64,000 nt of DNA from Burkholderia cepacia GG4 (GTDB lineage Bacteria; Pseudomonadota; Gammaproteobacteria; Burkholderiales; Burkholderiaceae). The stretch's first letter is position 1; each line of letters opens with the position of its first letter. The notes beneath the pieces were generated by a model. That model did not search any database. It saw only the letters and a list, made by a program, of their open reading frames with translations, and had not been told where the DNA came from. The position numbers and the translations under genes are program-made. Of the stretch, positions 29,396-30,916 are shown one piece after another. The stretch is taken from assembly GCF_000292915.1 (NCBI RefSeq), contig NC_018513.1, forward strand, positions 434,001 to 498,000. The letters run 5' to 3'.

Positions 29396-30916
29396 CTACA
29401 GCGGAATTTCGACGGTGCCGGCGTCCTTGACGATCGCCGTGACGATCTGGCCGGCGGCCATCCTGACCCGCACCGATTGGCCGGGCGCCGCGTTCGCTAG
29501 CGCGCTGCCCTCGGCCGAGATGGTGAAGCCGGGCCCCGCCGCGACGACCCGCACCGTCTGGCCGGCCGACACCGACGCCGGGCTCTTCAGCAAGTCCTGA
29601 CGCAGCGGCAGCCCGGCCGAGATCCGCACGAGCGCGGTCGCGCCGACTGCCTGCGCGGGATCGGTGATCACCGCGAGCGGCAGCACGGTCAGGTCGCCGT
29701 CGCGCGCGACGAGGTCGGCCGCGCTGAGCGGTTCGCCCGGCGCGATCTGCCGCGCGGCGACGTAGTAGGTGGCCTGCACGGCGACCTTCGCCTGCAGGTA
29801 GACGGTCCACGGCCGTTCACCCGCGCAGCGCACGCCGACCGTCGTGCGGCCCCACAGGCGTGCGCCGGTCGGCAGGAACGGCTCGAGCGTCGTGCACGCG
29901 GCGAGCCCGCGCGGAAACGCGGCCGCGACGGTCGCGGTGGTTTTGCCCGGCAGGCCCGCGACCTGCTGCTGCAGGAAGGCGAGCCGCGAGGCTGGGTTGC
30001 CTATGGTCCGACACGCGACACCGACAAGGACTCGACCTGGGGCGAAATCGAAGCGATCTACCTGCATCCGTCGCATTGCGGCCAAGGAATCGGCGCGGCG
30101 CTGGTCAACCATGCGTGCCGTGCGCTGCATGACGCAGGGCATGTCCGGGTGTCGCTGTGGGTGCTCGTCGAGAATCGTCGTGCGAAGGCATTCTATGAAC
30201 GCGAGGGCTTTGTCGTCGAGCGCGACGTCAAGACGTTCGAGATCGACGGCGCGCCAATCGAAGAGGTTCGCTATTGGCGTACGCTTCTTTAGCTTGAATC
30301 CTCCCGTGCCATCCCTCCCCTGACGCCCCGTCACACCTTCGGCCCATTTCCCGCCGGGTTTGCCGCCGATATCGTGCTCGTGTCCACTCGCAACGCGGAC
30401 CCATCCAGACCGATCGACATCGAACCGGAGGCACATCATGCAATACGCATATCGCGGTGAAGACAACGCCCACGCGGGCAAACCCGGCCGCACGCCGGCG
30501 GACGTCAAGGCAGCAGGCGGCTTCACGCCGTGGCAGGCCAAGACCGTCGACGACGCAAGAAGCAACCTCGTGAAGCTCGTCACGACCATCGAGCTGGCCG
30601 GCTGCGCCGCGTAGCCGGCCGCGGCCGCGCCGGTCACGCCGGCAACGCCAGTCGCGCCGGCAACGCCAGTCACGCCGCCCGCCATCGCCATGCCCGCGCC
30701 CGCAGCCGTCCCCGCATTCCCGCCGAACTGCCCGCCGCTCGCCGCATTCGCATGCGCGAGCGCGGTCTCGGCCGTCTCGCCACGTCCGGGAATCACGATC
30801 ATGCCGTCGTCCGCGTGCGCGGCCGGCACCGCGAGCCACAGCGCCGCGGCGAGCGCGAGCGCACGCCGGACGCGCGTCCGGCGTCCGTCGTTTCCGCGAA
30901 GTGCGCTGCCTGCCAT
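29396..30916 (-). CDS. flgA: FlgA (P-ring chaperone), interrupted by an in-frame foreign insert
   Basis: FlgA is the periplasmic chaperone for FlgI. The N-terminal part (residues 1 to about 101, from 30916 to about 30614) has a signal peptide ending VPAAHADD and a collagen-like Gly-x-Thr run (GVTGVAGATGVAGVTG). The C-terminal part (about 310-506) has the SAF/ChapFlgA features AFLQQQVAGLPG, YYVAARQIAPGEPLSAADL, RDGDLTVLP and GQTVRVVAAGPGF. Residues about 102-309 are foreign: they are antisense to a GNAT fragment and an ADP-ribosyltransferase-like fragment. The frame is nevertheless open throughout, so a 506-residue chimera could be made. Whether it folds is unknown; it may be a pseudogene. It is divergent from flgB across an FlhDC-like box. 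Confidence 0.82.
   Translation of the reverse strand: MAGSALRGNDGRRTRVRRALALAAALWLAVPAAHADDGMIVIPGRGETAETALAHANAASGGQFGGNAGTAAGAGMAMAGGVTGVAGATGVAGVTGAAAAGYAAQPASSMVVTSFTRLLLASSTVLACHGVKPPAALTSAGVRPGLPAWALSSPRYAYCMMCLRFDVDRSGWVRVASGHEHDIGGKPGGKWAEGVTGRQGRDGTGGFKLKKRTPIANLFDWRAVDLERLDVALDDKALAFIECLRTTILDEHPQRHPDMPCVMQRTARMVDQRRADSLAAMRRMQVDRFDFAPGRVLVGVACRTIGNPASRLAFLQQQVAGLPGKTTATVAAAFPRGLAACTTLEPFLPTGARLWGRTTVGVRCAGERPWTVYLQAKVAVQATYYVAARQIAPGEPLSAADLVARDGDLTVLPLAVITDPAQAVGATALVRISAGLPLRQDLLKSPASVSAGQTVRVVAAGPGFTISAEGSALANAAPGQSVRVRMAAGQIVTAIVKDAGTVEIPL
29985..30610. other. Foreign insert inside flgA (approximate borders)
   Basis: About 0.62 kb with its own + strand gene fragments replaces the middle of flgA. 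The left border is near 29985, where flgA coding for LAFLQQQ meets GNAT coding for GWVAYGPT. The right border is near 30600-30614, where the ART-like frame runs into flgA coding for GAAAAGYAAQ. Each border is uncertain by about 15 bp. No inverted ends, transposase or obvious target duplication was seen, so this looks like captured filler DNA rather than a transposon. Confidence 0.75.
29990..30292 (+). pseudogene. GNAT acetyltransferase, 3' fragment
   Basis: The frame reads GWVAYGPTRDTDKDSTWGEI and continues through EAIYLHPSHCGQGIGAALV to WVLVENRRAKAFYEREGF and a natural TAG stop at 30290-30292, about 100 codons. The acetyl-CoA motif A (HCGQGIGAAL, fitting Q/R-x-x-G-x-G/A) and motif B (NRRAKAFYEREGF) are plain, so this is the C-terminal half of a GNAT N-acetyltransferase. 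The N-terminal half is missing because the DNA joins flgA at about 29985. No start codon or ribosome site serves it. The substrate is unknown. Confidence 0.85.
30438..30614 (+). pseudogene. ADP-ribosyltransferase-like gene, 5' fragment
   Basis: A 58-codon frame with a strong ribosome site (CCGGAGG, 6 nt before the ATG at 30438). The product starts MQYAYRGEDN, then GRTPADVKAAGGFTPWQ. The pattern Y-R-x-D/E followed by R-x-P-x-D-(I/V)-K-x-x-G-G-(F/L) resembles the N-terminus of cholera/heat-labile/pertussis-type ADP-ribosyltransferases, in which the first Arg (here R6) binds NAD. The later Ser-Thr-Ser and Glu elements are absent because the frame runs into flgA after VTTIELA. It is therefore an inactive 5' remnant. 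The family assignment rests on remembered motifs, not on a search. Confidence 0.5.

What the first reader, a model, noticed from the sequence alone, without database searches (positions are those of the whole stretch)
29396..30916. flgA carries about 0.6 kb of foreign DNA yet stays in frame as a 506-residue chimera
Seen: the N-terminal signal-peptide part and the C-terminal SAF part of FlgA are separated by about 208 codons that, on the opposite strand, encode clear pieces of two unrelated genes. No stop occurs in the flgA frame. Known: FlgA is normally about 220-400 residues and has no such insert. Inference: either a tolerated insertion giving an enlarged P-ring chaperone, or a motility-damaging mutation that is silent at frame level. 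The other flagellar genes look intact, so this strain may be impaired in a single step, P-ring assembly.
Basis: partly seen in the sequence, partly recalled or inferred. Interest (0 to 1): 0.75.

Follow-up and report, generated by a model that had tools for sequence, protein, structure and literature searches.

The report
flgA patched with second-contig DNA
A flagellar assembly gene in a Burkholderia genome has had part of its flexible middle swapped for an exact 614-base copy of unrelated DNA from elsewhere in the same genome, giving a longer hybrid protein that still reads without interruption; it looks like a natural copying accident of a known general kind, and its effect on swimming is unknown.

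Summary
In detail: flgA (29396-30916, minus) is an uninterrupted 506-codon frame whose middle is antisense to pieces of a GNAT acetyltransferase gene and a second, Pfam-less gene. The DNA is not foreign. Window 29974-30587 (614 bp) is 100% identical to a place on the second contig of the same genome (C2:426030-426643), where both genes stand whole. Nor is it a plain insertion: it replaced about 320-380 bp of native Ala/Pro-rich linker plus the start of the FlgA_N domain. One border lies in 13 nt shared by the donor and flgA of relatives; the other in a shorter or imperfect match. No Ku gene was found, and no repeats mark the borders. Best reading: a recent microhomology-guided double illegitimate recombination or template switch between replicons, seen in no other listed sequence. 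The open frame needs no selection: 21-23% of same-length frames here are stop-free. The part that in Salmonella binds FlgI is intact, so the protein may still work; six extra cysteines argue for caution. New example of a known kind of event; no reads were available to exclude assembly error.

The parts
29396..30916 (-). chimeric flgA, 506 codons
   Evidence: ORF list; Pfam ChapFlgA, SAF, ChapFlgA_N
30588..30916 (-). native 5' part of flgA: signal-peptide-like start, conserved N-terminal stretch and repeat-rich start of the linker
   Evidence: alignment with 10 Burkholderia FlgA; signal peptide judged by eye
29974..30587 (.). 614-bp patch, 100% identical to G000:C2:426030-426643
   Evidence: whole-genome DNA search; the next base differs from the donor on either side
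29975..30292 (+). 3' fragment of a GNAT acetyltransferase gene (105 codons and stop), antisense to flgA
   Evidence: whole donor protein hits Acetyltransf_1, E 1.5e-17
30438..30587 (+). 5' fragment (50 codons) of a 162-codon gene of unknown function, antisense to flgA
   Evidence: donor gene has no Pfam match at E<=1; 16 homologues
30575..30587 (-). border 1: 13 nt shared by the donor and by flgA of relatives (16 of 64 compared loci)
29974..29983 (-). border 2: exact run of 4 nt with flgA in 56 of 64 compared loci, usually within 10 nt that differ at one base; 10-11 nt exact in 6 of 64; 0-1 nt in 2 of 64
29396..29973 (-). native 3' part of flgA: nearly all of FlgA_N, whole SAF/ChapFlgA region
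28948..29277 (-). flgM, downstream on the same strand
   Evidence: Pfam FlgM, E 4.4e-11
28422..28859 (-). flgN, downstream on the same strand
   Evidence: Pfam FlgN, E 2.6e-31

Best explanation
A recent, one-off copying event within the cell. A strand of, or a replication fork in, flgA on the first contig paired by a short shared sequence (13 nt) with an unrelated locus on the second contig (3.0 Mb, taken to be a second chromosome), copied or took up 614 nt of it, and rejoined flgA about 320-380 nt further on at a second short or imperfect match. The donor locus stayed whole. This is a microhomology-guided double illegitimate recombination (or template switch) that swapped the native Ala/Pro linker for antisense-coded sequence. 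The antisense frame happened to be stop-free. The product is inferred to be a secreted FlgA with a longer, unrelated linker, a changed start of domain D1, and intact D2/D3; I think it somewhat more likely than not still to support P-ring assembly. Shown: exact copy, donor intact, native-type segment missing, 13-nt match at one border with flgA of relatives, open frame. Inferred: the molecular route, the timing, that the protein is made, and its activity.
For: 100% identity over 614 bp to C2:426030-426643 while the flanks share no further base with the donor. Donor GNAT and second gene are intact in place. The nearest FlgA (P0002, Burkholderia sp. A9, 417 aa) differs at 1 of 193 aligned C-terminal residues but has 118 residues from VVTS to LAF where the window has 204 unrelated ones. 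Relatives have 317-383 nt between the same borders (the 37 of 64 loci with at least 11 nt shared at border 1). Border 1: 13 nt shared in 16 of 64 loci, at least 11 nt in 37 of 64 (two collections pooled, so some species count twice); in L011, L012 and L013 it is the longest or equal-longest exact match between about 2.0 kb around the donor and 2.6 kb around flgA. A relative's donor locus (L080) carries the same 13 nt. No Ku found in this genome.
Against: No reads, so assembly error is not excluded. Border 2 shares only 4 exact nt in 56 of 64 loci, so guidance there is weak unless the ancestor differed. At border 1, 27 of 64 loci share fewer than 11 nt; among them is L010, one of the two best-matching relatives, with 4 nt exact and one mismatch within the 13. 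In L018 a longer match between the two regions lies elsewhere. The ancestor's own sequence is unknown. 614 bp may be long for the described 'short patch' events (recalled). The AlphaFold model was too poor to use (mean pLDDT 34.9).
Confidence: 0.78

Rival explanations
1. Assembly or library artefact: a chimeric read or mis-joined repeat put second-contig sequence into flgA.
For: The copy is perfectly identical, and the 506-aa form is seen on one contig only. No reads could be examined.
Against: Both borders return to flgA with about 320-380 bp replaced, the frame is preserved, and the genome is in two contigs. A false join would need two errors and a deletion (inference).
Confidence: 0.08
2. 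The chimeric flgA arrived whole from another strain by homologous recombination or transformation; the patch formed elsewhere.
For: The flanks are normal Burkholderia flgA, so homologous transfer would leave no mark (inference).
Against: The patch is 100% identical to this genome's own donor, while in seven fetched relatives' donor loci the pieces overlapping the patch are about 81-92% identical. P0002 has a nearly identical C-terminal part but no patch. PMC6102250 (passages) says its authors knew of no naturally competent B. cepacia complex strain; whether this isolate belongs to that complex was not tested.
Confidence: 0.07
3. Double-strand-break repair by Ku/LigD end joining captured a filler fragment.
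For: Deletion with a captured filler fits end joining in general (recalled).
Against: No Ku family match in this genome (of 14 control genomes only B. subtilis rings). 13 nt shared at one border is more than end joining needs (recalled).
Confidence: 0.03
4. A mobile element or gene cassette brought the segment.
For: None found.
Against: The patch holds fragments of two genes and no complete one. No repeat of 12 nt or more has its copies at the two borders, the flanks carry no direct repeat of 2-12 nt, and the two ends agree, as an inverted pair, at 4 of 15 positions. Plasmid collection: one partial match, 84% over 290 bases, in a 3.5-Mb Burkholderia arboris record.
Confidence: 0.02
5. On a separate axis (consequence, not origin): the event has knocked out FlgA function, so the strain is blocked at P-ring assembly.
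For: The start of the FlgA_N domain is replaced (Pfam match starts at profile position 7, against 1 in 3 of 3 relatives). Eight Cys against 2-3 in 10 relatives. In Salmonella an engineered FlgA disulfide blocked assembly (PMC4895218, results section part 1). FlgA of B. pseudomallei is named among putative DsbA substrates (PMC7678975, one passage). No second flgA was found.
Against: The D3 domain, needed for FlgI binding in Salmonella, is intact. The linker varies naturally in length (whole proteins 356-435 aa). The frame is open. Neighbouring flagellar genes that were scanned look whole.
Confidence: 0.42

Closest known systems
Double illegitimate recombination / short-patch substitution of intragenomic DNA (Huelter and Wackernagel 2008; Harms et al. 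2016; titles seen only in reference lists; 2016 paper not held; contents recalled)
   Same: A heterologous segment from the same genome replaces recipient DNA, donor stays intact, short shared sequence at a border.
   Different: Here a natural contig-to-contig event with a 614-bp patch in a Burkholderia; the 2008 title names Acinetobacter baylyi, and I recall shorter segments in the 2016 work. Dependence on single-stranded DNA not testable.
Microhomology-mediated template switching during replication (recalled model)
   Same: Copy of a distant template inserted between short shared sequences.
   Different: Would need a fork to use another replicon as template; no direct evidence.
FlgA, flagellar P-ring chaperone (Pfam PF13144, PF17656; PDB 3tee, 3vjp, 3vki)
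   Same: N-terminal part as in relatives, FlgA_N, SAF and ChapFlgA region, flgM and flgN downstream.
   Different: From VVTS to LAF, 204 residues, nearly all antisense-coded by the donor genes, stand where P0002 has 118.

Membership tests
Double illegitimate / short-patch substitution | inserted segment identical to DNA elsewhere in the same genome, donor retained | tested here: met
   614 bp at 100%, donor genes intact
Double illegitimate / short-patch substitution | recipient DNA replaced | tested here: met
   317-383 nt between the same borders in the 37 of 64 loci with at least 11 nt shared at border 1; protein alignment
Double illegitimate / short-patch substitution | short shared sequence at both borders | tested here: inconclusive
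   border 1: 13 nt in 16 of 64 loci, at least 11 in 37 of 64; border 2: 4 nt in 56, 10-11 nt in 6, 0-1 nt in 2 of 64; ancestor unknown
Double illegitimate / short-patch substitution | segment length within the range described | not tested
   source paper not held; range only recalled
Double illegitimate / short-patch substitution | formation from single strands, suppressed by recombination and exonuclease functions (recalled) | not testable with these tools
   needs genetics
FlgA P-ring chaperone | ChapFlgA and SAF domains | tested here: met
   E 2.7e-30 and 9.8e-13
FlgA P-ring chaperone | complete FlgA_N domain | tested here: inconclusive
   matches from profile position 7; three intact relatives from position 1
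FlgA P-ring chaperone | supports P-ring assembly | not testable with these tools
   needs motility or basal-body work
Mobile element insertion | terminal inverted repeats or target-site duplication at the borders | tested here: not met
Ku/LigD end joining | Ku gene present | tested here: not met
   no PF02735 match in the genome; of 14 controls only B. subtilis rings

The most novel reading that the evidence does not exclude
The patch is a living example of protein innovation: an antisense-read stretch of two unrelated genes has been drafted as a new working linker of a flagellar chaperone, through copying between two replicons, and such patching may be a continuing source of change in the loose linker of Burkholderia FlgA.
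Probability: 0.12. Interest if true: 0.65.

Novelty: new member of a known kind. Interest (0 to 1): 0.42.

Why it matters
Natural examples of a patch with a known donor, known borders and an open frame help to judge how often illegitimate copying, rather than gene transfer or transposition, creates chimeric genes. It also shows a trap for annotation: the gene name and domain calls survive although about two fifths of the protein (roughly 205 of 506 codons) is antisense-coded sequence. The isolate would tell whether the long linker of Burkholderia FlgA matters for P-ring assembly.

Tried and rejected
Foreign origin: rejected, donor found in the same genome. Plain insertion: rejected, native-type linker is missing. 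Mobile element: no border repeats. Ku-based joining: no Ku found. Redundant second flgA: the only other ChapFlgA match (C2:1588170-1588364, 23.1 bits) lies in a 339-aa frame that looks to me like a CpaB-type SAF protein (recognised by eye). Structure: one AlphaFold job on an alignment of 11 sequences, mean pLDDT 34.9, not used. Other patches: the whole window was searched against its own genome in four pieces; apart from flgA, the only long near-identical match is 99% over about 2.16 kb at the window's end, not pursued; the rest of the genome was not scanned for patches. A first border count was off by one base at border 1, and a chance estimate used one locus (L013) in the wrong orientation; both were redone. 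Paper searches returned nothing; one returned nothing used.

Full report
What is there. Window 29396-30916 on the minus strand is one open frame of 506 codons. Its last part matches ChapFlgA, SAF and ChapFlgA_N. Downstream on the same strand lie flgM and flgN. On the other side the divergent flagellar cluster begins: ten frames, by order flgB to flgK, give fitting Pfam matches, including FlgI, the P-ring protein. Flagellin_N matches one place elsewhere on the first contig and one within the cluster.

The middle is a copy from the second contig. A search of the genome with window 29700-30900 gave a 614-bp match at 100% identity on contig 2 (C2:426030-426643), repeated with a larger query. It corresponds to window 29974-30587 and stops dead at both ends: the next base differs on either side. 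At the donor place the two genes are whole: a 174-codon GNAT acetyltransferase and a 162-codon gene with no Pfam match at E<=1. The patch holds the last 105 codons of the first and the first 50 codons of the second, both antisense to flgA. The second gene is rare: 16 homologues at E<=0.001 in a 5.8-billion-protein set, by a word-based search of limited sensitivity. In none of seven relatives' donor loci that I fetched do the DNA matches cover both genes in full: four (L081, L082, L084, L086) lack a match over the whole second gene, L083 has no match before the GNAT gene, L079 lacks part of the second gene and L080 lacks the GNAT gene. So among these the pair in this arrangement is this genome's own.

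It replaced native sequence. Of 1064 homologues, 120 are listed; the window's own is 506 aa, one sequence on one contig, and the other 119 are 356-435 aa. The nearest, from Burkholderia sp. A9 (P0002, 417 aa), differs from the window at 5 of 110 aligned N-terminal and 1 of 193 aligned C-terminal residues outside the patch, yet has an Ala/Pro-rich linker where the window has the patch: 118 residues from VVTS to LAF against 204. In DNA, relatives have 317-383 nt between the same borders (the 37 of 64 loci with at least 11 nt shared at border 1). In the 65-genome genus search (window's own included) the listed flgA matches of other genomes stop at or near the borders: N-side matches end by query position 348 and C-side matches begin at 915 or later, the patch being 330-943 (more matches existed than were listed, and some genomes have only one side listed).

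Borders. At border 1 the donor and flgA of relatives share 13 nt in 16 of 64 compared loci, at least 11 nt in 37 of 64 and fewer in 27. Two collections were pooled, so some species count twice. In L011, L012 and L013 this is the longest or equal-longest exact match between about 2.0 kb around the donor and 2.6 kb around flgA; in L010, equally close to the window, one base differs and 4 nt match exactly; in L018 a longer match lies elsewhere. One relative's donor locus carries the same 13 nt (L080). Random position pairs show a run of at least 13 nt with frequency 0 to 5.4e-6 in the four loci L010-L013, a figure that includes border 1 itself. At border 2, 56 of 64 share 4 nt exactly, usually inside 10 nt that differ at one base; 6 share 10-11 nt; 2 share 0-1 nt. 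The ancestor's base is unknown, so border 2 is inconclusive.

Mechanism. A perfect copy, an intact donor, loss of recipient DNA, and a shared sequence of 13 nt at one border point to microhomology-guided double illegitimate recombination or template switching between replicons. Huelter and Wackernagel 2008 and Harms et al. 2016 treat such events, to judge by their titles, which I saw only in reference lists; the 2016 paper is not held and I read neither; what I say of their content is recalled. Natural transformation is a less likely vehicle: a 2018 paper (PMC6102250, passages) knew of no naturally competent strain in the B. cepacia complex. Whether this isolate belongs to that complex was not established; named relatives are Burkholderia with one Paraburkholderia. 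Ku was not found. The flanks show no target duplication and the ends no inverted repeat.

Why the frame is open. Of six frames of the patch only one is stop-free, the one used. In this window 23% and in the donor neighbourhood 21% of frames of that length are stop-free. So an open frame is unremarkable; selection for it is possible but not shown.

Consequence for the protein. In Salmonella FlgA an amphipathic helix opens domain D1, D3 is needed to bind FlgI, and loss of the natural disulfide does not affect motility (PMC4895218, abstract and results section part 1). The profile of the alignment joins Salmonella FlgA at residue 9 with the AFLQQQ stretch, so the patch changes the counterpart of roughly the first eight residues of D1 and everything before it back to VVTS. 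The rest is intact. Against function: eight cysteines instead of two or three, an engineered disulfide in Salmonella FlgA that blocked ring assembly, and a 2020 paper that names FlgA of B. pseudomallei among putative DsbA substrates (PMC7678975, one passage), which makes mispairing conceivable. No second flgA was found. I put retained function at a little over even. The predicted structure was too poor to help.

Verdict. It is a clear natural example of a known kind of copying accident.

Noticed in passing
window 61839-64000: About 2.16 kb at the window's end is 99% identical to C2:2367363-2369529 of the same genome; the frames look like ABC transporter permeases (by eye). Possibly a second recent duplication or gene conversion between contigs.
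   Followed up: no
L002:1162-1650 (minus): 162-aa gene without Pfam match, 16 homologues in 5.8 billion proteins; missing wholly or partly from six of seven related donor loci.
   Followed up: partly
window 15688-15892: Match to Rfam RF02690, Burkholderia sRNA 1 (147 bits).
   Followed up: no
window about 21952-22244: Stretches near 21954-21985 and 22213-22244 match each other inverted at 97%, with a 93% copy at C1:607387-607426.
   Followed up: no
L063 (Burkholderia sp. Nafp2/4-1b) and L023 (unnamed, same figures): flgA shows no VVT stretch in the linker; the protein is listed at 361 aa (P0072): a natural shortening of the linker.
   Followed up: no
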